Source: Gluconobacter sphaericus NBRC 12467 (GTDB lineage Bacteria; Pseudomonadota; Alphaproteobacteria; Acetobacterales; Acetobacteraceae). From it: a stretch of DNA of 64,000 bases. The translations under genes and the position numbers were made by a program. The notes under the pieces were generated by a model. The model did no database searches. It saw only the letters and a program-made list of their open reading frames with translations, and was not told the origin of the DNA. The DNA is taken from assembly GCF_006539125.1 (NCBI RefSeq), contig NZ_BJMK01000005.1:1-64000 (forward strand). Direction: 5' to 3'. Below are positions 47,579 through 62,349 of this stretch, piece after piece; the first letter of the stretch is position 1, and every line of letters starts with the position of its first letter.

Positions 47579-49018
47579 ATGTTTGGCTTGTCGGCTCTAT
47601 TCTTGGCGCGTTTCCAGTTCGCATTTACGGTCGGGTTCCATATTGTATTCCCGGCTTTCTCGATCGGTCTCGCAGCCTATCTCGCAGTCCTCGAAGGCCT
47701 GTGGCTCAAAACGGGGCGCAGCGCCTATCTGGACCTCTTCAAATACTGGCTGAAGGTCTTTTCCGTCGTCTTCGGCATGGGTGTGGTCTCCGGCCTCGTC
47801 ATGTCCTACGAATTCGGAACGAATTGGTCGGCCTTCTCGCAGAAAGCCGGTCCAATCCTCGGTCCAATGCTGGCCTATGAGGTCATGACGGCCTTCTTCC
47901 TTGAAGCCGGCTTCCTCGGCGTCATGATGTTCGGCCTCAACCGCGTCGGCAAGGGCCTGCATTTCGCAGCCACCTGCATGGTCTCGATCGGCACGCTGAT
48001 TTCCATGAGCTGGATCCTGTCCTCCAATTCCTGGATGCAGACACCCCGCGGCTACCGCATCGACGAGGCGACCGGCCGTTTCCTACCTGTTGACTGGTGG
48101 CAGATCGTCTTCAACCCGTCCTTTCCGTACCGCATCGTGCACATGGGCCTCGCAGCCTTCCTGTGCGTGGCCTTCATTGTGGCAGGTGTGGCCGGATGGC
48201 ATCTGCTCAAGGCCCGTCGTGAAGGCCGTCAGGCGTCCGAACAAGTCCGCTTGATGTTCTCCATGGCCATGTGGATGGCCGCCATCGTCTCCCCGATCCA
48301 GGTTCTGGCGGGTGATACGCAGGGCCTGAATACGCTTGAATATCAGCCTGCCAAGATTGCCGCGCTCGAAGGGGACTGGGAATCCGAAAGCCGGGCACCA
48401 GAGATCCTGTTCGGCATTCCGGACATGGAAAACGAGACCACGCATTACAAAATTTCCATTCCCTACATGGGTTCGCTGATCCTGACGCACAGCCTGAATG
48501 GCAAGGTCCCGGGCCTGAAGGACTTCCCGAAGGAAGACCGCGCCTATTCCCCACTGCTGTTCTTCTCCTTCCGCATCATGGTCGCCCTTGGCATGCTGAT
48601 GGTGCTGGTTGGTCTGTGGTCGCTGTATCTGCGTTGGAAAGGCAAGCTGTACGATACGCCGCTTCTGCACCGTATCGCGCTGTTCATGTCGCCTGCGGGC
48701 TTCCTCGCCCTGCTCTGCGGCTGGATCACGACTGAAGTCGGTCGCCAGCCCTTCACGGTCTACGGCCTGCTGCGGACCTCCGACAGCGTCTCCCCGATCG
48801 CTCTGCCGAGCATCGCAACGTCGATGATTGCCTTCATCGTCGTCTATTTCATCGTGTTCATGGGTGGCATCACCATCCTGCTGCGGACCTTCGCCGAAGA
48901 ACCCCATCCAGGCGAACACGGCCCCGCTGAAGACCAGCCCCAGCGTGCCGCAGGTACAACACAGGTCTCCCATCAGCCCCCGTCCAGCCCGACGGCCGGC
49001 GCTGGCATGGCGGAGTAA
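47579..49018 (+). CDS. cioA: cyanide-insensitive quinol oxidase subunit I (CioA)
   Basis: A 479-residue bd-type quinol oxidase subunit holding hemes b558, b595 and d. FQFAFTVGFHIVFPAFSIGL at about residue 12-31 contains a heme-ligand His; the region near 190 has MAMWMAA; GRQPFTVYGLLRTSDSVSP near 390 is the classic quinol oxidase block. The Q-loop is short, as in the CIO subgroup. Ends with a polar tail. With CioB it reduces oxygen in the inner membrane without proton pumping. Confidence 0.94.
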   Translation: MFGLSALFLARFQFAFTVGFHIVFPAFSIGLAAYLAVLEGLWLKTGRSAYLDLFKYWLKVFSVVFGMGVVSGLVMSYEFGTNWSAFSQKAGPILGPMLAYEVMTAFFLEAGFLGVMMFGLNRVGKGLHFAATCMVSIGTLISMSWILSSNSWMQTPRGYRIDEATGRFLPVDWWQIVFNPSFPYRIVHMGLAAFLCVAFIVAGVAGWHLLKARREGRQASEQVRLMFSMAMWMAAIVSPIQVLAGDTQGLNTLEYQPAKIAALEGDWESESRAPEILFGIPDMENETTHYKISIPYMGSLILTHSLNGKVPGLKDFPKEDRAYSPLLFFSFRIMVALGMLMVLVGLWSLYLRWKGKLYDTPLLHRIALFMSPAGFLALLCGWITTEVGRQPFTVYGLLRTSDSVSPIALPSIATSMIAFIVVYFIVFMGGITILLRTFAEEPHPGEHGPAEDQPQRAAGTTQVSHQPPSSPTAGAGMAE

Positions 49019-49023
49019 GAACC

Positions 49024-50049
49024 ATGACAGAAACAGCCGGCTTCTGGCTCCCGGTGGTCTGGGCGCTGCTCGCAGCAACCGCCATCTTCCTCTATGTCTG
49101 CCTTGATGGTTTCGACCTCGGTATCGGCATCCTGTTCCTCAAGGAAAAGGACCACGATCACCGTAACCTCATGGTCAACACCGTCGCTCCAGTCTGGGAC
49201 GGCAACGAAACCTGGATGATCTTTGGCGGAGCCGCACTCTATGGCGTCTTCCCCGTCGCCTACGGCACGATCCTCCCGGCCCTTTACCTGCCGATCCTGT
49301 TCATGCTGCTGGCCCTGATCCTGCGCGGCGTGTCATTCGAGTTCCGCTTCAAGTCGGAATCGCCCATGAGCCAGTTCTTCTGGGACATTTCCTTCTGCGG
49401 CGGCTCCATCGTGGCGGCCTTCATGCAGGGCATCATTCTCGGAACGCTCGTCCAGGGCATCAAGGTCGAGAACAACGTGTTCGTCGGTTCCAGCTTCGAC
49501 TGGTTCTCACCGTTCTCCCTGTTCTGCGGCCTTGCCGTGGTCATCGGCTACGCACTTCTCGGGGCGACCTGGCTGCTATGGCGCTGTGAAGGCGAACTGC
49601 ACGACACGATGCGCAGGATTTCCTTCACTCTTGCCGGTCTGATGCTGGTCACGATCGCCCTGGTCTCCGTCTGGACGCCGATGCTCCACGCCACATACAT
49701 GCAGCACTGGCTGGACATGCCGCAGCTCGCTCTGGTGGCGCCGGTTCCGGTTGCAGTCGTCGTTCTCGCAGCAACGCTATTCCTCGGACTGCGGAACCCG
49801 CGCTCGCACCTGCTGCCGTTCATCGCGACGCTGGGCCTGTTCTTCCTGTGCTTCAGCGGTCTGGGCATCAATGTGTGGCCCTATATCGTACCGCCGACCA
49901 TCACCATCTGGCAGGCCTCCTCTCCGCCGGAGAGCCAGACCTTCCTGCTGGTCGGTACGATGTTCCTTTTGCCGCTGATCCTGTCCTACACGGCCTATTC
50001 GTACTACGTGTTCCGCGGAAAAATGTCCGCCGAGCATCACTACCACTAA
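49024..50049 (+). CDS. cioB: cyanide-insensitive quinol oxidase subunit II (CioB)
   Basis: A 341-residue eight-helix subunit II. Starts FWLPVVWALLAATAIFLYVCLDGFDLGIG, where the DGFDLG motif is conserved, then NTVAPVWDGNETWMIFGGAALYGVFP. Follows cioA by 5 bases. Complete. Confidence 0.95.
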   Translation: MTETAGFWLPVVWALLAATAIFLYVCLDGFDLGIGILFLKEKDHDHRNLMVNTVAPVWDGNETWMIFGGAALYGVFPVAYGTILPALYLPILFMLLALILRGVSFEFRFKSESPMSQFFWDISFCGGSIVAAFMQGIILGTLVQGIKVENNVFVGSSFDWFSPFSLFCGLAVVIGYALLGATWLLWRCEGELHDTMRRISFTLAGLMLVTIALVSVWTPMLHATYMQHWLDMPQLALVAPVPVAVVVLAATLFLGLRNPRSHLLPFIATLGLFFLCFSGLGINVWPYIVPPTITIWQASSPPESQTFLLVGTMFLLPLILSYTAYSYYVFRGKMSAEHHYH

Positions 50050-54599: not shown

Positions 54600-55085
54600 T
54601 CAGACCCGCGCCAGTTCCTCAAGCGCGTGCAGGATCTCCTGCGGCGCTGGTGGACAGCCCGGAATCGCACGCCGCACCGGCGTCAGGGCCTGCAAGCCTC
54701 CCAACGTCGCATAACCGGCCGGAAACGGCCCTCCATCGACTGCACAAGCCCCAACCGCAATCAGGCTCCGGCCCGGCGGCATAGCCCGCCACACCCGGTC
54801 TAACATTTCAGCACAGACCCGCGTCACCGCCCCGGTCAGCAGCAACCAGTCCGCATCCGCCGGATCGCTCACACAAACAAAACCCGCCTGCTCCAGCGCG
54901 AACGCACTGCCATTGAGGGACTCGACCTCCATGAAGCATCCCTCGCAGCCACCGGTCTCAAGAATATACAGCCCGATCGGACGCTCCCGCCGCGGAATTT
55001 CCCCGTTCACAGACGCCCGCCCACGCGTTGCATCCATGAAAGCGTAAAGCAGGCTCAGAGGCCCCGTCCGTTGTACAGCCTTCAC
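54600..55085 (-). CDS. NuoB/HyfI-like Fe-S subunit of the hydrogenase-related complex
   Basis: A 161-residue NuoB/HycG/HyfI-type small subunit. It keeps all four [4Fe-4S] ligands: C47 and C50 (ETGGCEGC), C114 (AVGACAVDGG) and C144 (AIPGCPPAP). GTG start whose codon overlaps the large-subunit stop (GTGA), with GGGGA upstream, so it is translationally coupled. It should be the cytoplasmic electron-carrying subunit that contacts the large subunit. Last gene of the six-gene set. Confidence 0.82.
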   Translation of the reverse strand: MKAVQRTGPLSLLYAFMDATRGRASVNGEIPRRERPIGLYILETGGCEGCFMEVESLNGSAFALEQAGFVCVSDPADADWLLLTGAVTRVCAEMLDRVWRAMPPGRSLIAVGACAVDGGPFPAGYATLGGLQALTPVRRAIPGCPPAPQEILHALEELARV

Positions 55086-56521
55086 AGCGCAATCCCCGCC
55101 GGTGAAATCCCGATCGAACCCAGAGCCGCCGGCACCCGGCTGATGGGATAACCCCGCAGCATCGCGCCCAGAACCGGCAGAAGCGATACACCCGGATCCC
55201 TCACATGCAGGCTCTCGATCCGCCCGTCTTTCAAACGCACCCAGTACCACACATCTCCGCGCGCGCCCTCGGCCACGCCAATGCCCTCATCCGTCCGGTC
55301 CGGCGCGGGCTCGTCGTCTTCCAGACCGATACTCCCCAGAATCCGCTCCAGCAGCTTGAGAGAGTCGCGGATTTCGGCAAGCCGCAGCCCTTCTCGCGCC
55401 CGAGCATCCCCCTGGCTCGATCCTGTCGCCCGCAATGCCTCCAGCCGCATCCCGGCCTCCCGCCGCCGCATGTCCATGCTGCGGCCACTCGCCCGCCCGC
55501 TCACGCCACCCACGGCAAAGCGTTCGGCCAGCCTCACATCCAGAACCGCAAATCCGTCCAGCCGCGATGCAAAAACCCGATGAAGCTCTTCCAGCGCTGC
55601 AAGACGCGGTTGCATTACCGCATGAACGGCCTGAGCCAGCGGCACGATCTCGAGCCCATCCCGAAACCCGTCACAAGTCACCATATCCATCAGACGTCGC
55701 GAAACACCCTGCTCCGCACAGGCCCGCGCGATGGCTTCCCGCGCATGATCGCAATGCGTCGCGAGCAACTCCGCATCCACACCCCGCGCCGTCCTAGCCA
55801 TGTCGAACAGATGGAGCGACATCCGCTCGATCTCCAGCAACACCATCCAGACATCCCGAATGCCGGGCCCCGGAACCAGCCCGCGCGCCTGCGCCACAGC
55901 CCGCGCGAAAGCCAGAGGATGCGCCACGAATCCACCCGCCGTCATCCGAGACACCAGCGGCATGGCCTCTTCCGGCGTCCGCCCCAGCAGGCGCGACACA
56001 ACTCCGCGATGCGCGCCTCCCGCACAAACCTCCACACTCCGGACTTTGCCCTTCCGAACCTCAAAGGACAGTTCCAGCGGTCCGCTCAGCCCCGTCTGCT
56101 CAGGACGCAATAGATGACTTCCCGCCAGCGGCCGCAATCCTCCTGCCGCTGGCCCCGGACGGGACGACAGCGGCCAAGTGGACGTCCAACCGCCTTCATC
56201 CAGCGCCGACGCTCCATTCCCATGGGCATCCATCGCTTCCACGCCATACAGATCATACGCCACGCGTTCGCCCCACTCGGCCCCGGCAAAACGCGAGGAC
56301 GGCGCAAGATAACGCCGCTCTTCCACTGCCGTGCTCGTCAGAAGCGGACGATCCCCCTCCAACAGCAGCACGTAGGCACGGGCATCATCCGCCCAGCAGG
56401 ATATTAATGGCAACGTCGCGCCCGGCGCCGACAGCATTGCGCTCCACTGTTCGGCATCAAGATGATAATGCGACAACGCAACCCGCTCGCCGCTGCGGAT
56501 GATCCGTCCCATCCCCATCAT
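55082..56521 (-). CDS. NuoCD/HyfG-like large subunit lacking the nickel ligands
   Basis: A 479-residue fused NuoC-NuoD-type protein. The N-terminal NuoC-like part ends AEWGERVAYDLYGVEAMD (81-98). GGAHRGVVSRLLGRTPEEAMPLV follows. Where group 4 hydrogenases read VERVCGICGFAH, this has VSRMTAGGFVAH, so the two cysteines are T194 and G197. At the C-terminus SLDPCYSC is replaced by SIGISPAG, so the cysteines are S473 and G476. No NiFe site can form. The fold appears kept. Overlaps its neighbours by 4 bases at both ends. Confidence 0.82.
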   Translation of the reverse strand: MMGMGRIIRSGERVALSHYHLDAEQWSAMLSAPGATLPLISCWADDARAYVLLLEGDRPLLTSTAVEERRYLAPSSRFAGAEWGERVAYDLYGVEAMDAHGNGASALDEGGWTSTWPLSSRPGPAAGGLRPLAGSHLLRPEQTGLSGPLELSFEVRKGKVRSVEVCAGGAHRGVVSRLLGRTPEEAMPLVSRMTAGGFVAHPLAFARAVAQARGLVPGPGIRDVWMVLLEIERMSLHLFDMARTARGVDAELLATHCDHAREAIARACAEQGVSRRLMDMVTCDGFRDGLEIVPLAQAVHAVMQPRLAALEELHRVFASRLDGFAVLDVRLAERFAVGGVSGRASGRSMDMRRREAGMRLEALRATGSSQGDARAREGLRLAEIRDSLKLLERILGSIGLEDDEPAPDRTDEGIGVAEGARGDVWYWVRLKDGRIESLHVRDPGVSLLPVLGAMLRGYPISRVPAALGSIGISPAGIAL

Positions 56522-57606
56522 GGCCGCCACCCCGTCACCGGATGCCAGGCCAAAAACAGCGGACCACACAGCCCCCCCAGAAGCAAAACTGCCTGCATTA
56601 CGACCACCATGCCCCGCTCTCCCCGAGCAAACGCTGGCAGAAGCGTCCTGTGCCTCACAGACCACAAAGCAGGCAGCAGACACACCATCAGCAGAACCAG
56701 CTGCCCGGTTTCAAGCGACCGCCCGATCCCGACAAGCGCACAAAACACCGGCCAAGGCGCAGCCCCGGCCGCAATTCCATCCTCGCCCTCTGCACCGCGC
56801 AGGTCCAGAACCGCAAGCCCAAGCGCCGCAAGCAGCAGCAGGATCAGCGCCGTGCCTTCCGCAGTCGCAGCCGCCAGAGCCCCGAAGGCAGACAGCATCG
56901 GCAGGGACATATTCCGGCCTGAGGAGCGTGACGAGACGAGCATGATGATCGTCCCGAACCCCGCGATCAGCATCAGCAGATGAACCAGCGGATACGCACT
57001 CAGCCGGAACATCAGCATGAGTGCCGAAAACCGCAGCCCCGTATCCAGAAGCGCTGCCTCAGGCGCCGAAGTCGGCGAGGGCCCAAGCCCTGCCAACATG
57101 CACAGCCCCACTGTCAGCAGCACCGCACCAAGCGACGACTGTTGCATCGGCAGAAGCGAAGCCCCCAGAAGCCCCAGCACCACACCGCCCAGCCGGCTGC
57201 GCGCCATATCCCAGACAACAAGCGCCTTGCGAGGCCCACGCCCCTCACGCCAGGCCAGCAGAACCGTTCCCGCACCACACAGAACCGTCACGGCAAAAGC
57301 GGAGTGAATGTTGAGTGCCAGAAGCGCACAGCCAGTCACCAGAAACGGCAGGATGCGCCCGGTCCGGTCCTGAGCCTGCGGCAGAAGCAGCGGAATTGCC
57401 GTCACGATACAGGAACACGCTGCTGCCAGCGCATCCGTGCCCGGCATGAGCCAGACAGCCAGCGGCGTAATGACGAGCCCGGCCACAGCGAAAGTCAGAC
57501 TACTGGCAGGCTGGCGGTTTTCTGGCGTCAGAAGAAGCAGCAATGCCGCCAGAAGCGGCCAGACCGTTACGGCAAACAGGGTTCCAACAGGAGCAAGCGG
57601 ATGCAT
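56518..57606 (-). CDS. HyfF/NuoN-like antiporter-type subunit lacking the channel lysine
   Basis: A 362-residue very hydrophobic protein with about ten helices, shorter than the 450-500 of HyfF/NuoN. The region GLCMLAGLGPSPTSAPEA (168-183) aligns by eye to the TM7 block of antiporter subunits (K-A-G-L-x-P-L-H-x-W-L-P-E-A), with L171 where the pump lysine belongs. The TM5 glutamate position also has a non-polar residue. ATG at 57606 shares one base with the preceding stop (TGATG). Confidence 0.68.
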   Translation of the reverse strand: MHPLAPVGTLFAVTVWPLLAALLLLLTPENRQPASSLTFAVAGLVITPLAVWLMPGTDALAAACSCIVTAIPLLLPQAQDRTGRILPFLVTGCALLALNIHSAFAVTVLCGAGTVLLAWREGRGPRKALVVWDMARSRLGGVVLGLLGASLLPMQQSSLGAVLLTVGLCMLAGLGPSPTSAPEAALLDTGLRFSALMLMFRLSAYPLVHLLMLIAGFGTIIMLVSSRSSGRNMSLPMLSAFGALAAATAEGTALILLLLAALGLAVLDLRGAEGEDGIAAGAAPWPVFCALVGIGRSLETGQLVLLMVCLLPALWSVRHRTLLPAFARGERGMVVVMQAVLLLGGLCGPLFLAWHPVTGWRP

Positions 57607-58127
57607 CAGACGTCCTCCACCCTGCGCCACGCCAAACGCGGCAGAAGCGTCACACCGAGCGCCGCCAAAACACCCCACAGGCTCAGCGCCGCTGCAAAAA
57701 GCGGCCATGAATGAAGCACGCAGGCCACGACGACCAGCCCGTCCGCAGCCCGTAAAAGTCCCGTGAACTGAACCAGCGGCGCCCCCCATGCCGCACCGCA
57801 AAGACCGGCCAGAACCGCTCCAGCCCCCAGAACAGGCGCAAGTCCCAGACCCGCACCCGATAGTCCGAGCGCGAGCAGCAACACAAGCGTCCCGACAACC
57901 GGCAGAACAGCCGCCCGATCCGGCGCTTCCGGCGCAAAGCGCCGCAGCCAGACCCAGGCAAGAAAATTCAGCCCGACCAGGGCCGCAGACGTCAGAAGCG
58001 CCATCACCCCCGAACAAACCGTCGCCCCCGCAAAGGCACAGACCGCCCCATAGAGCGGCAACCCCCGCCCGTCCTTGCCCAGACCCGCCAGCGCCAGAAG
58101 CAGCAGTAATCCAAACCCCACGATCAT
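57606..58127 (-). CDS. HyfE-like membrane subunit
   Basis: A 173-residue protein with about five transmembrane helices and a short polar tail (LPRLAWRRVEDV). Fits the size and place of HyfE, which carries NuoK-like helices, but no diagnostic glutamates are obvious. Starts with an ATGA overlap with the NuoH-like gene stop. Confidence 0.6.
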   Translation of the reverse strand: MIVGFGLLLLLALAGLGKDGRGLPLYGAVCAFAGATVCSGVMALLTSAALVGLNFLAWVWLRRFAPEAPDRAAVLPVVGTLVLLLALGLSGAGLGLAPVLGAGAVLAGLCGAAWGAPLVQFTGLLRAADGLVVVACVLHSWPLFAAALSLWGVLAALGVTLLPRLAWRRVEDV

Positions 58128-58993
58128 GTGCCAAACCTCCCCGCCAGAGCCAGAAGGAGCGCCACACCCGCAAACAACGCCGTCAGCCGCGCACTCCGCT
58201 CCTGCGCCATCAGACGCAGCCCGACCGCCACAGCAACCGTCAGCGCCAACCTTCCCCCCAATGCCAGAAACCCGAGCCACCAGCCCTGCACACCGCCCTG
58301 CGCAAGTCCGACACTCACCGGCAACGCCAGATCCGCCAGCAGCAGCAGCCAGCCACAATTCAGCACATCGGCAATACTGCGCGTGGCCTCACGTTCATGA
58401 CGATCCTGAAGGCCGGACAGCATCTGCGTCACATCATCCGAGCGCAAAGGCGGACATGCAATTCCAAGCGCCAGCGCACAGGCTGCAAGCGCACCCTCCA
58501 GGCCCGGCTCAGGCTCGATATGCAGCATCGCGCACAGGCCCGACAAACCGTCCGTCCCCGGTGCGGCCAGAGCAATGAGGGCCTCGGTCAGACACAGGAG
58601 CAGAACTGCAGGCACCAGACGGCCCCCTTCACCCTGCACCAGGCCCGGCCCCAGGAATCCGCGCCCCAGCAGCACGACCAGCCCGACAACAAGCGGATCA
58701 GCCAGCGACGACAACGCCGAGCCCGTTGTAACTGTCGGCAGACACACAAGCGTCAACACACCCGCCGTCAACGCCATCGCCGGACGTCCGCCTAGTGGAG
58801 CCTGAAACAGCGCTCTCCAGACACGCGCCGCCTGTAACAGACGGAACCGCACGCTCCCGACTGACCGTCCCGCCAGCCAGAGCGGCAGGCTGTCCAAACA
58901 CCAGCCCATCACCGGCGCCAGAACGAGAAGCAGCCCCACTTGAAACAGCGCTTCCAACACGGACAGCAGGATCAGTCCGATCTCATGCCCCAT
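58124..58993 (-). CDS. NuoH/HyfC-like membrane subunit
   Basis: A 289-residue protein with about eight helices. CLPTVTTGSALSSLADPLVVGLVVLLGR (about 97-124) and the later stretch around MLHIEPEPGLEGALAACALALG resemble HycD/HyfC. The arginine/glutamate-rich quinone-cavity loops of NuoH are largely lost. Length is a little under HyfC (about 310). One-base overlap with the upstream gene. Confidence 0.62.
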   Translation of the reverse strand: MGHEIGLILLSVLEALFQVGLLLVLAPVMGWCLDSLPLWLAGRSVGSVRFRLLQAARVWRALFQAPLGGRPAMALTAGVLTLVCLPTVTTGSALSSLADPLVVGLVVLLGRGFLGPGLVQGEGGRLVPAVLLLCLTEALIALAAPGTDGLSGLCAMLHIEPEPGLEGALAACALALGIACPPLRSDDVTQMLSGLQDRHEREATRSIADVLNCGWLLLLADLALPVSVGLAQGGVQGWWLGFLALGGRLALTVAVAVGLRLMAQERSARLTALFAGVALLLALAGRFGT

Positions 58994-60345
58994 CACGCCA
59001 TCACTCCCAGTACCGCCAGAACGAGACCAAGAAGCACAAGCCAAAGCCCCACCGCGCCCTGACGCAAATCGGGAAGAACAGGAGCCTTTACGTTTCGAAG
59101 CACTCTGAGCCGGCGCCGCCCTGCCACGATGACGCTACGCATTTTCCACCCCAGGGAGGGTGCTTCCTCAAACAGACCGTCCCCGACCGAAAGCAGATTT
59201 CCCAGCGCAGGAAGAAGCGTGGAGGCCGCCTGCACAATCCCTCCGACAACCCGCCAGGGACGCACCAGAACACACCACAGAATAGCCCCTGTAAGCACGA
59301 AAGCTGGCAACCGCAGAGAGGCGCCATCCCCACCGCCCATGCGCCAGACAGGCCAGACCCACTCTCCACTTATGAAATGCAGAACCGGACTCGCCATCCC
59401 AAACACCAACGCAGGCAACAGCAGACTTGCCGCCCCTATGAAGAGAACAGAGGTGCCCGGAACAGTCCCCTGCCACGCCCGCAAAACCCGTCCCACAATG
59501 AGAATATCCGAGAGAGACAGCAGCCCCAGCAGCAGGGCAACTACGACACCCAGCACGCTCCAGCCCTCGACCCCTGCCGCCATACCGAGCGCGGCATGAA
59601 TCCCAAGCCATAGGACAACGAGTCCGGGCAAAGGTGGAAACGGCAGCCGTAACACCGACAACGCCGGAAACACGCGTCCCAGTACGGCCGTCAAAACCAG
59701 CAGTGACAGATCAAGAAGTGTGGCTTCCAGCGCAATCCGGGCACAAACCGCCAGACCTTCCGCCTGCGCTGCCACGACCAGAACCATCAGCAGAACAGGC
59801 CGCAAAAGCCCCAGATCTCCCGGACGACAGGCCCCAAGGACAGACCGGCCCAGCAATGCGATCACAGCCGCCCCAAGCCCTGCGACGAGCTCAGCCGGAA
59901 CCGACACAGGCGCATGCCAGACCAGCGATACGCCCAGAATGCCCATCACGGCGGGAAATGCCCCGCCTTCCTTCTCCTCGTCAGGCTGGCGCACCAGCGC
60001 AGACCAGAACAGGACTGGCAACACTGCCAGCACCAAGAATGTCTGGGCCGGAAACAGCACAGAAAGCAGCAGAGCCGGAACACTCCACACTGCCGGACAG
60101 GCCTCCCGGTCCTGAGCCGCAATCACGCCCAGCGCGACAGCCTGAACGGCTGGCGACAGGCCCAGAACCGTAGCCAGCGCCGCCACACAGAGAACCGCGG
60201 CTCTCCCTGCACGCCCCGGCTGTATCGCCTGCACACAGGCAGGAACGACCAGAAACGCCAGGCAGAGAGAAACCGGATCAACATGAAAAAGGGAGTCGAA
60301 AATATGCAGGGCGCGGTCCGAACAAGAAGTGAAAACGGACCGCAA
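58993..60345 (-). CDS. HyfB/NuoL-like membrane subunit, short and divergent
   Basis: A 450-residue integral membrane protein, start TTG at 60345, 12 bases after the aldo/keto reductase stop. It begins FDSLFHVDPVSLCLAFL, like the NuoL/HyfB start. About twelve helices. HyfB is usually near 670 residues; the C-terminal arm is missing and the canonical channel lysines are not recognised. Ends with a soluble-charged stretch and one helix. Confidence 0.6.
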   Translation of the reverse strand: MRSVFTSCSDRALHIFDSLFHVDPVSLCLAFLVVPACVQAIQPGRAGRAAVLCVAALATVLGLSPAVQAVALGVIAAQDREACPAVWSVPALLLSVLFPAQTFLVLAVLPVLFWSALVRQPDEEKEGGAFPAVMGILGVSLVWHAPVSVPAELVAGLGAAVIALLGRSVLGACRPGDLGLLRPVLLMVLVVAAQAEGLAVCARIALEATLLDLSLLVLTAVLGRVFPALSVLRLPFPPLPGLVVLWLGIHAALGMAAGVEGWSVLGVVVALLLGLLSLSDILIVGRVLRAWQGTVPGTSVLFIGAASLLLPALVFGMASPVLHFISGEWVWPVWRMGGGDGASLRLPAFVLTGAILWCVLVRPWRVVGGIVQAASTLLPALGNLLSVGDGLFEEAPSLGWKMRSVIVAGRRRLRVLRNVKAPVLPDLRQGAVGLWLVLLGLVLAVLGVMA

Positions 60346-60357
60346 TCATCACGACCG

Positions 60358-61203
60358 TCAGATCATGGCGAGAGATACCTTGCGTTTCGGCGGAGGGAAA
60401 GCACTGTCCAGCGTTTTGAGATCCGCATCCGTCAGACTGATCTCCAGACTGGCCAGATTTCCGGCAACATGCTTCGGCGATCCGGCCTTCGGAATGGCCA
60501 TCACATTCGGCCGGCGCAGCACCCAGGCCAGCGCAATCTGCGCCGGATCAGCAGGCCCCAGGGACGTCTCATGGCGCGACGCCACATCCTTCAGTGCCGG
60601 ATGCTCCAGCAGCGCTCCGCCCTGCCCGAGCGGCGAATATGCCATCGTGACCGTATCGGTACTCAAATCATGATCCAGAAGATCGAACTCTGTCCCGCGA
60701 TGCTCAAGATTATACAACACCTGATTGACCAGACAGTTTCCCGACAGGCTCTCAACTTCCTCCATGTCATCGACATCAAAGTTCGAAACACCCCAGCCCC
60801 GGATCAACCCGTCATCCTTCAGGTCTTCGAACGCGCGGATCGTCTCCTCAAGCGGCGTGCCCCCGCGCCAGTGCAACAAGTACAGATCCAGCCAGTCCGT
60901 ATCGAGATGCTTCAGTGAACGCCGGCAGGCCTTGCGCACACCATCATACGACGCATTGGACGGCACCACCTTACTGACGAGGTAAACGTCATCGCGCACA
61001 TCCGAGATGGCCTCGCCCACAAGCTTTTCTGAACGACCATTGCCGTACATCTCGGCCGTATCAATAACCCGCAAACCAGCCTCAAGCCCCTTGCGCAGGC
61101 TCTCAACCTCATGCGTATGCCGGGCCGCACTGTCGCCGACATTCCAGGTCCCCATTCCAAGCGCGGGAACTGTGACACCGTTCCTGAGCGTGACTGTTTT
61201 CAT
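60358..61203 (-). CDS. aldo/keto reductase
   Basis: A 281-residue NADPH-dependent oxidoreductase. The tetrad is D and Y in DTAEMYGNGRSEKLVGEAI (about 48-66), K in SKVVP and H in LYLLHWRG. The C-terminal NADPH-binding end has VMAIPKAGSPKHV. AGGAAA lies upstream of the ATG. It begins the part of the run that leads directly into the hydrogenase-like genes (12-base gap). Acetic acid bacteria use such reductases on ketogluconates and other sugars; the substrate is unknown. Confidence 0.88.
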   Translation of the reverse strand: MKTVTLRNGVTVPALGMGTWNVGDSAARHTHEVESLRKGLEAGLRVIDTAEMYGNGRSEKLVGEAISDVRDDVYLVSKVVPSNASYDGVRKACRRSLKHLDTDWLDLYLLHWRGGTPLEETIRAFEDLKDDGLIRGWGVSNFDVDDMEEVESLSGNCLVNQVLYNLEHRGTEFDLLDHDLSTDTVTMAYSPLGQGGALLEHPALKDVASRHETSLGPADPAQIALAWVLRRPNVMAIPKAGSPKHVAGNLASLEISLTDADLKTLDSAFPPPKRKVSLAMI

Positions 61204-61224: not shown

Positions 61225-62349
61225 TCAGACAACGATAGGATCAGCCGGCTGTTCCCTCGAAACTTCAGTCTGCGCCCCCATATCCGTCTTCGGCGCTACA
61301 CCATTTTGCGCCAGAAGACCCCGCAGTTTCCGCACGATCGGGAAGACCTCGACGTTATGATCACCGCCGAGTTCGCACCAGGCGTTCTGCTCCAGTTCCA
61401 TGATTTCGCGGTCTTCTTCAAAGATCCGGTGCGTGAAGATACCCAGCGCAGGCCAGATTATGTCGATCAGGAACGGCGTTTTAGGCCGCAGCACCGACAG
61501 TAGGCCGAAACACTGCGTACTCATGCCATCCGCCGTATTCGGCACATAAACGCTGAACAATTCCATGATCAGGTCGCCATCCTTGTCATGGATTTTCAGG
61601 CTCTGATACGGATAGGCCGTGCGGATACTGACGATTTCCTCGACCGGCTGCTCCCGGTTCGGATCATCATGATGCTTACCAAAAATCAGACGTTCCGCCA
61701 GTGGCTGCTGATTTCCACTGCGCGCAAAGCTGTAGCGTGCCTCGATGAAGCCCTCACCGGCATCCTGCCCCAGAAAACGTGCCCTGATCTGCCCCATCTG
61801 ACGGCGGTGCAGGAACTGATGGTTCATGTCCATCAGGTTCTCATGCATGAACGTGTAATGGCACTTCACGACAGGGCTGAAGCGCCGTGTTTTGAAGGCC
61901 GGATTGTCCACCTGAGCCAGAGACGGCAACGGCACGCTCTCCGCCTTTTTTGCATCGCCCGGAAAAATGAAGATCATCCCACCGGCCTCACGACAGGGAT
62001 ACGTCTTCACGCCATTCGGCAATTTGCCTTTACCCAGATACGGCACATCAATGCACCGCCCGGACCGGCCATAAGCCCAGCCGTGATAGCAGCACTGGAC
62101 CACCTCACCGCTAACCTTCCCCAAACTGAGCGGAACCTGCCGGTGCGCACAGCGGTCCTCGAGCGCGAAGACACGTCCTTCTTCGGGCCGCACCAATGCA
62201 ACAGGAAAGCGCCCGAACCGTCGTCCGATCGTCTTGCCGCGCTTGAGATCCTTTGACCAAGCCAGAGGATACCAGAAGTCGGGATTAATATCGACGCGAC
62301 GAAGATCAGTCTTCAAAGGCGCAGGGGAAGAATTCGCGGGCTCTGTCAC
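61225..62349 (-). CDS. Rieske-type ring-hydroxylating oxygenase
   Basis: A 374-residue Rieske non-heme iron oxygenase alpha-like subunit. The 2Fe-2S cluster uses C67-x-H69 (CAH) and C86-x2-H89 (CCYH). The mononuclear iron site is in MHENLMDMNHQFLHRRQMG: N171, D174, H177 and H181. GTG start with AGAGG upstream. It is 21 bases before the aldo/keto reductase. No reductase or ferredoxin partner follows, so the electron donor is unknown. Confidence 0.83.
   Translation of the reverse strand: MTEPANSSPAPLKTDLRRVDINPDFWYPLAWSKDLKRGKTIGRRFGRFPVALVRPEEGRVFALEDRCAHRQVPLSLGKVSGEVVQCCYHGWAYGRSGRCIDVPYLGKGKLPNGVKTYPCREAGGMIFIFPGDAKKAESVPLPSLAQVDNPAFKTRRFSPVVKCHYTFMHENLMDMNHQFLHRRQMGQIRARFLGQDAGEGFIEARYSFARSGNQQPLAERLIFGKHHDDPNREQPVEEIVSIRTAYPYQSLKIHDKDGDLIMELFSVYVPNTADGMSTQCFGLLSVLRPKTPFLIDIIWPALGIFTHRIFEEDREIMELEQNAWCELGGDHNVEVFPIVRKLRGLLAQNGVAPKTDMGAQTEVSREQPADPIVV

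What the first reader, a model, noticed from the sequence alone, without database searches (positions are those of the whole stretch)
55082..56521. Hydrogenase-type large subunit in which all four nickel-ligand cysteines are replaced
The VERVCGICGFAH box of group 4 hydrogenases reads VSRMTAGGFVAH (T194, G197) and the C-terminal SLDPCYSC box reads SIGISPAG (S473, G476), while the flanking residues still align. The gene is intact and tightly overlapped by its neighbours, so this looks like a selected loss. It would be an energy-converting-hydrogenase-related (Ehr) type protein whose reaction is unknown.
Basis: partly seen in the sequence, partly recalled or inferred. Interest (0 to 1): 0.8.

Follow-up and report, generated by a model that had tools for sequence, protein, structure and literature searches.

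The report
Hydrogenase relative without nickel or pump
A Gluconobacter gene cluster encodes a relative of hydrogenase and respiratory complex I that lacks the nickel site, as a known class does, and also lacks the usual proton-pumping residues of its membrane parts, yet natural selection keeps it intact, so it probably does a job other than pumping.

Summary
It is not a recent loss: the set is absent from the window, from 80 of 83 loci read in its family, and from 20 of 20 read in other alphaproteobacterial families (the 3 exceptions are true hydrogenases). That absence defines the known Ehr class. The gene is under purifying selection (dN/dS about 0.08) and uninterrupted in 26 of 26 genomes of the genus.

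Ehr operons of other families keep the canonical proton-channel residues of HyfB (18 of 18) and HyfF (20 of 20). In a large Acetobacteraceae branch that holds this window, these and the HyfE glutamates are gone and the His loop of HyfG is no longer conserved, while the [4Fe-4S] ligands of HyfI remain. All six genes are under purifying selection; seven genomes carry a pump-type and a pump-less copy.

I read it as an Ehr-derived complex that no longer pumps canonically, probably a membrane-anchored [4Fe-4S] relay, sensor or scaffold. Its reaction is unproven; a rewired ion path or slow decay remain possible.

The parts
55082..56521 (-). hyfG-like large subunit (NuoC-like plus NuoD-like), 479 aa, without the nickel cysteines
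55931..55942 (-). former N-terminal CxxC box, codons of T194 to G197
   Evidence: alignment; coordinates computed
55094..55105 (-). former C-terminal CxxC box, codons of S473 to G476
   Evidence: alignment; coordinates computed
54600..55037 (-). hyfI-like small subunit, 145 aa, with the four [4Fe-4S] ligand positions C31, C34, C98, C128 kept
   Evidence: Pfam Oxidored_q6 8.9e-24; alignment; PDB hits; start codon chosen by me
56518..57606 (-). hyfF-like antiporter-type membrane subunit, shortened to 362 aa, one lysine in all
   Evidence: no Pfam or NCBIfam hit; two-step profile link
57606..58127 (-). hyfE-like (NuoK-type) membrane subunit, 173 aa, both membrane glutamates replaced by Ala
58124..58993 (-). 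hyfC-like (NuoH-type) membrane subunit, 289 aa
   Evidence: iterated profile; charged columns
58993..60345 (-). hyfB-like antiporter-type membrane subunit, shortened to at most 450 aa (start codon uncertain), three lysines
   Evidence: two-step profile link and operon position
60358..61203 (-). aldo/keto reductase gene ending 12 bp before the hyfB frame; possible first gene of the operon, link unproven
   Evidence: Pfam Aldo_ket_red 1.3e-52; neighbourhood

Best explanation
The gene encodes the large subunit of an Ehr (energy-converting hydrogenase-related) complex of a derived branch found here only in the Acetobacteraceae. Step 1, ancient and general to Ehr: the four nickel cysteines were replaced, mostly by S-S-S-G, while the pump stayed intact. 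Step 2, in this branch: the His loop of the large subunit lost its conservation, the canonical Lys/Glu proton axis of HyfB and HyfF and the two membrane glutamates of HyfE were lost, and in the window's sub-branch HyfB and HyfF shrank. What stays conserved is the set of six genes, the [4Fe-4S] ligands of HyfI and the HyfG residues that should surround the cluster. Most likely it is no longer an energy converter. I infer that it works as a membrane-anchored [4Fe-4S] module: an electron relay without pumping, or a redox-responsive scaffold. Shown from sequence: the losses, their placing on a tree, purifying selection, retained ligand positions. Inferred: assembly, a bound cluster, the absence of pumping, the relay or sensor role.
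For: Pump residues in 18 of 18 HyfB and 20 of 20 HyfF outside the family against 0 Lys at TM7 in 40 HyfB and 36 HyfF of pump-less loci. One branch of 39 pump-less rows plus one unclassified row, SH-aLRT 96, with no pump-type row. HyfE glutamates: 10 and 11 of 11 pump-type rows, 1 and 0 of 29 pump-less rows. HyfI ligand positions: 30 or 31 of 31 pump-less rows. H171, R192, R376, E418, G422 in 41 of 41. dN/dS 0.05 to 0.20 for all six genes. Uninterrupted hyfG in 26 of 26 genomes of the genus. Both types side by side in seven genomes. No hypD and no other 49-kDa-type subunit in this genome.
Against: Pump-less HyfB, HyfC and HyfF have conserved charged positions of their own, and the window's HyfB has six acidic residues in predicted helix cores, so another ion path is possible. 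The window's own HyfB and HyfF link to pump-type relatives only through intermediates: directly 67% and 4% profile probability. One genus keeps HyfI without three of the four ligands and one genome has broken genes. No biochemistry; structure models unusable.
Confidence: 0.5

Rival explanations
1. It still moves ions or another solute, by residues other than the canonical Lys/Glu set: a rewired pump or transporter driven by, or gated by, the cluster.
For: Conserved charged positions in the window's sub-branch (19 rows): HyfB H250 (17 basic) and D340 (16 acidic), HyfF K127, R136, R138, D188, R201, HyfC D116, D238, R303. HyfB of Gluconobacter and Neokomagataea keeps E196 and D212 in 12 of 12.
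Against: Several pump-less HyfB and HyfF proteins of 364 to 637 residues have no lysine at all; HyfE has lost both glutamates; most of the conserved charges look like helix-end positions (by eye, not tested).
Confidence: 0.2
2. It is a slowly decaying relic kept intact by chance or by low-level use.
For: Fast divergence and shortening of membrane subunits; broken hyfG and hyfI in G126; lost cluster ligands in genus g100; hyfB dN/dS about twice that of three of the four neighbours.
Against: dN/dS 0.05 to 0.20 across the operon; 26 of 26 genomes of the genus with uninterrupted hyfG; 79 of 200 genomes sampled from the order with a pump-less-type HyfF match.
Confidence: 0.15
3. It is an ordinary Ehr complex: a nickel-free oxidoreductase that still couples its unknown reaction to canonical proton pumping.
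For: Same gene order hyfB-C-E-F-G-I as pump-type Ehr loci; same tree.
Against: Canonical pump residues absent in HyfB, HyfE and HyfF; the His loop shared by pump-type Ehr is not conserved (Q142, E150 in the window).
Confidence: 0.1
4. It is a working [NiFe] hydrogenase with unrecognised nickel ligands.
For: Clear homology to formate hydrogenlyase large subunits.
Against: No cysteine in or near either box; no hypD match in the genome; no HyfA or HyfH gene between hyfB and hyfI.
Confidence: 0.01

Closest known systems
Ehr complexes (energy-converting hydrogenase-related), e.g. in comammox Nitrospira (PMC10284858) and lineages sibling to Cyanobacteria (PMC6349859); passages seen
   Same: Group 4-derived large and small subunits with antiporter-like membrane subunits and no CxxC nickel motifs; function unknown
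   Different: Ehr are suspected of charge translocation because of their antiporter-like subunits (PMC6349859); here those subunits lack the canonical channel residues
E. coli hydrogenases 3 and 4 (HycE, HyfG; group 4 [NiFe] hydrogenases)
   Same: Fused NuoC/NuoD-like large subunit, HyfI-type small subunit, HyfB/C/E/F-type membrane subunits
   Different: No nickel cysteines; no HyfA, HyfD or HyfH gene in the operon; no hypD in the genome; HyfB and HyfF shortened and without the channel Lys/Glu
Respiratory complex I (NuoB, NuoCD, NuoH, NuoK, NuoL/M/N)
   Same: Homologous core; [4Fe-4S] ligand positions of the NuoB-type subunit kept
   Different: No NADH module in the operon; NuoCD His columns read Q142 and S146, NuoCD Tyr column A195; channel residues absent
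Mbx of Pyrococcus furiosus (named as an Ehr-type complex in PMC6349859)
   Same: Nickel-free relative of membrane-bound hydrogenase
   Different: Described there as a ferredoxin-using complex that potentially pumps protons; the window's operon has no ferredoxin-type gene and no canonical pump residues

Membership tests
Ehr complex | Large subunit homologous to group 4 hydrogenases but without the CxxC nickel motifs | tested here: met
   definition from PMC10284858 and PMC6349859, passages
Ehr complex | Branches with other Ehr large subunits, apart from the hydrogenases | tested here: met
   80 Ehr-type rows form one branch, support 100, beside L104 hydrogenase; quick tree; no published Ehr reference sequence was included
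Ehr complex | Antiporter-like membrane subunits | tested here: met
   homology through intermediates only: pump-less core to other pump-less 99.3% (HyfF) and 96.5% (HyfB), those to pump-type 100%
Ehr complex | Presumed charge translocation: canonical Glu/Lys axis in those subunits (suspected, not a formal criterion) | tested here: not met
   columns in the window's own HyfB and HyfF are uncertain, lysine totals 3 and 1 agree
Group 4 [NiFe] hydrogenase | Four nickel-ligand cysteines | tested here: not met
Group 4 [NiFe] hydrogenase | Maturation gene hypD in the genome | tested here: not met
   0 matches in the genome, 4 of 14 control genomes ring; genome 99.92% complete
Complex I | Quinone-site His and Tyr of NuoD (which residues: recalled) | tested here: not met
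   Alignment columns read Q142, S146, A195 in the window
Complex I | NADH-binding module | tested here: not met
   none among the genes of the operon; not searched in the whole genome
Any energy-converting complex of this superfamily | Measured redox-coupled ion transport | not testable with these tools
   needs biochemistry

The most novel reading that the evidence does not exclude
A branch of the complex I / group 4 hydrogenase superfamily has lost metal site, conserved substrate loop and canonical proton axis, at least twice independently within one bacterial family, and yet persists as a six-gene complex under purifying selection, sometimes beside a pump-type copy: a 'pseudo-complex I' whose whole membrane arm has been turned to a non-pumping task.
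Probability: 0.5. Interest if true: 0.75.

Novelty: new variant of a known kind. Interest (0 to 1): 0.55.

Why it matters
Complex I and its relatives are treated as ion pumps. A long-lived branch that keeps the architecture but drops the pump residues would show what the scaffold can do without pumping, and is a natural control for which residues are needed for coupling. The window's genome has no other match to the 49-kDa complex I subunit, and Gluconobacter can be modified genetically, so the function can be tested directly. It also warns annotators: such genes look like hydrogenase-4 components but lack the nickel site and, on present evidence, the canonical pump.

Tried and rejected
Cysteines elsewhere in the large subunit: five exist, none in the boxes. 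A missing small subunit: no hyfI was found beside hyfG in 10 of 40 loci; a search of 16 genomes found an Ehr-type copy in all 16, so a complex without the cluster subunit was dropped. A redox partner in the neighbourhood: clustering of flanking frames gave operon genes, housekeeping genes and the aldo/keto reductase; frames were not all named. Structure predictions of HyfB and HyfG from 12 and 14 close sequences gave mean pLDDT 48.4 and 35.4 and were not used; no fold search was run. A hydropathy count of charges in helix cores separated HyfB but not HyfF (E. coli HyfF itself scored 0 Lys). Promoter scan: 2 found, 1.5 expected. Two Gluconobacter oxydans knock-out papers hold no hydrogenase term in the main text (PMC8602642; PMC12041372; term searches only, supplements not searched). 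Ten paper searches listed no paper that I could recognise as being on pump-less Ehr or on this operon in acetic acid bacteria; the library lacks most subscription journals. The papers that first named Ehr are known to me from recall only and were not seen.

Full report
OBSERVATION. The coordinates are right but the gene lies on the minus strand: ATG at 56521, stop ending at 55082, 479 codons without an internal stop. In alignments with E. coli HyfG, HycE and NuoCD, the nickel cysteines of HyfG (243, 246, 517, 520) fall on T194, G197, S473 and G476. It is no chance frame: Pfam Complex1_49kDa E = 3e-13, PDB hit to formate hydrogenlyase subunit 5 with 8.8e-9, and a small subunit next door with Oxidored_q6 8.9e-24. 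The organism is a Gluconobacter: named loci from G. potus and G. oxydans are 98 and 97% identical. I take the unnamed family code f1 to be the Acetobacteraceae on that ground.

THE FOUR CYSTEINES. The loss is old. I read the large subunit in 83 loci of the family besides the window. They were picked from the matches, which lists 137 of 150 genomes with a match, some of them complex I, plus two named loci; many weaker matches were not fetched. Three keep all four cysteines (L098, L099, L104: true hydrogenases); none of the other 80 does. One of these (L077) has a single cysteine at the second position, and one (L082, a broken gene) could be read at two positions only. Outside the family I fetched 20 of the 23 genomes with a match better than 1e-24 among 289 sampled from the class: 19 are S-S-S-G and one S-T-S-G. 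Absence of the CxxC motifs is the published mark of Ehr complexes, whose function is called unknown (PMC10284858, passages; PMC6349859, passages). This part of the finding is therefore known in kind.

THE OPERON. On the minus strand, in order of transcription: hyfB 58993-60345 (start uncertain), hyfC 58124-58993, hyfE 57606-58127, hyfF 56518-57606, hyfG 55082-56521, hyfI 54600-55037. The first five overlap by 1 or 4 bp. There is no HyfA, HyfD or HyfH gene among them, and in 40 related loci no frame had HyfA or HyfH among its three best queries or HyfD as its best. Pfam (E up to 0.001) and NCBIfam (E up to 1) find nothing in the four membrane proteins. Iterated profiles recruit the window's HyfC and HyfE together with recognisable relatives. 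For HyfF and HyfB the link runs in two steps, with no rows shared between the profiles compared: the window's sub-branch matches the other pump-less rows (HyfF 99.3%, E = 3e-20, 358 columns; HyfB 96.5%, 8e-10, 295 columns), and those match pump-type rows (100%, 5e-45 and 1e-78). Directly, the sub-branch matches pump-type HyfB weakly (67%, 5e-5) and pump-type HyfF not at all (3.7%). Residue columns in the window's own HyfB and HyfF are therefore uncertain; those in the other pump-less rows are not.

THE PUMP RESIDUES. In complex I each antiporter-like subunit has Glu in TM5, Lys in TM7, Lys or His in TM8 and Lys or Glu in TM12, and small subunits carry E-channel glutamates; the review calls the axis residues essential in any mechanism (PMC10212512, passages). 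I read the columns of NuoM 144, 234, 265 and 407. Of 84 rows (window included) 37 are pump-type, 42 pump-less, 3 hydrogenases and 2 unclassified for want of HyfB and HyfF. Pump-type: HyfB 32 of 33 at each column; HyfF 37, 36, 35 (Asn at TM8, as in E. coli HyfF) and 34 of 37. Pump-less, one broken-gene locus dropped: HyfB 2, 0, 0, 0 of 40; HyfF 4, 0, 0, 0 of 36. These tallies are partly circular, because the class was set by the same residues. The tree of the large subunit is independent of them: 39 of 41 pump-less rows and one unclassified row form one branch (SH-aLRT 96) without a pump-type row (quick tree, several long branches). The other two (L085, L106) sit inside the pump-type rows, and holding all 41 together is rejected (AU p = 0.0004), so the residues were lost at least twice. 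Outside the family 18 of 18 HyfB and 20 of 20 HyfF have them, so pump-type is ancestral. Without any alignment: the window's HyfF has one lysine and its HyfB three, and several pump-less proteins of 364 to 637 residues have none; some pump-less rows are richer (L069 has 27 in HyfB), so totals alone do not prove it.

HyfE agrees. The glutamates at E. coli HyfE 159 and 178 are Glu in 10 and 11 of 11 pump-type rows and acidic in 1 and 0 of 29 pump-less rows; the window has Ala at both. In HyfC the window is charged at 10 of 28 positions that were chosen as charged in E. coli HyfC and most of ten pump-type rows (those have 24 to 28); the other pump-less rows have 7 to 21. In HyfG, pump-type rows have His at columns 142 and 150 (36 of 37 each) and Asp at 196 (37 of 37). 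In pump-less rows the commonest letter at 142 is Arg (7 of 41), His at 150 remains in 10 of 41 and Asp at 196 in 6 of 41; the window has Q, E and G. H171, R192, R376, E418, G422 and S469 stay in 41 of 41, and E230, R233, R275, D350 and R352 in 40 of 41. The four former cysteine positions are S-S-S-G in 27 of 37 pump-type rows and take 23 states in 41 pump-less rows, although Ser at 473 (29 of 41) and Gly at 476 (35 of 41) remain common. The HyfI ligand positions are kept in 30, 31, 30 and 30 of 31 pump-less rows with a HyfI in the locus and, read by eye, in nine copies lying apart from hyfG (L087-L095).

SELECTION AND SPREAD. Over 12 Gluconobacter sequences (11 for hyfB) median pairwise dN/dS is hyfB 0.198, hyfC 0.127, hyfE 0.051, hyfF 0.096, hyfG 0.082, hyfI 0.103; four neighbours, over 10 to 12 sequences, give 0.081, 0.080, 0.030 and 0.097. 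The method is Nei-Gojobori, pairs share branches, and dS reaches about 1.1. hyfG is uninterrupted in 26 of 26 genomes of the genus. A profile of pump-less HyfF matches 79 of 200 genomes sampled from the order, in 16 of 51 genera; all 79 are in the window's family, but the families of 101 unmatched genomes were not shown. That the pump-less type is confined to this family rests and is not exhaustive. Seven genomes carry both a pump-type and a pump-less locus: G083, G047, G127, G147, G099, G137, G062. This argues that the pump-less form is a distinct thing and not merely the dying stage of the other.

AGAINST MY READING. Genus g100 keeps an open hyfI without three of the four ligand positions in three of three species; dN/dS there is 0.29 to 0.39, from few changes. 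G126 has a broken hyfG and a stop in hyfI. The window's HyfB has six acidic residues in predicted helix cores, E196 and D212 of HyfB are invariant in 12 Gluconobacter and Neokomagataea sequences, and pump-less HyfB, HyfC and HyfF have conserved charged positions of their own, so another ion path is possible. In HyfF and HyfB, uncharged conserved columns have drifted as well (kept at 0.31 and 0.35 on average, charged ones at 0.16 and 0.23), so part of the loss reflects general divergence. The structure models were too weak to use.

MECHANISM. This genome has no hypD match and no other match to the 49-kDa subunit family. The operon has no canonical pump and no ferredoxin-type gene. What is kept is the cluster ligands, conserved residues of the large subunit that should lie around the cluster, and all membrane subunits. 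I commit to a membrane-anchored [4Fe-4S] module that does not pump by the canonical path, an electron relay or a redox-responsive scaffold, at about even odds. An aldo/keto reductase gene lies upstream on the same strand in the window and in 22 of 41 pump-less loci (within 140 bp of the hyfB frame in 16), 3 of 37 pump-type loci and 0 of 20 loci of other families. It is a candidate partner, but holC and pepA nearby are as conserved (24 loci each), so this may be mere synteny.

Noticed in passing
L186, L187, L188 (three species of genus g100); L080: HyfI stays open but lacks three of the four [4Fe-4S] ligand positions; dN/dS 0.29-0.39 from few changes. If functional, that complex would have no metal at all.
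   Followed up: partly
L082 and L093 (genome G126): hyfG is broken into pieces and hyfI holds a stop, while the sister genome G046 has open frames.
   Followed up: partly
L085, L106 (and possibly L117): A second, independent loss of the pump residues inside pump-type Ehr; HyfB and HyfF there are still long.
   Followed up: yes
L066, L072, L131: Pump-type loci with single channel residues replaced, possibly intermediate states.
   Followed up: no
L087-L093: In seven genomes hyfI has moved away from the rest of the operon but keeps the ligand positions.
   Followed up: partly
window 60358-61203 (-): Aldo/keto reductase upstream of hyfB, present in 22 of 41 pump-less loci; may be a partner or synteny.
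   Followed up: partly
window 61225-62349 (-): Rieske oxygenase whose best NCBIfam match is 4beta-methylsterol monooxygenase, 161 bits against a cut-off of 600; beside the operon in 1 of 41 other pump-less loci.
   Followed up: no
L098, L099, L104: Loci of the family with all four cysteines, i.e. true group 4 hydrogenases, in genomes that also carry Ehr.
   Followed up: no
window 47579-50049 (+): Two adjacent genes whose translations look like cytochrome bd-type oxidase subunits I and II (judged by eye, not searched).
   Followed up: no
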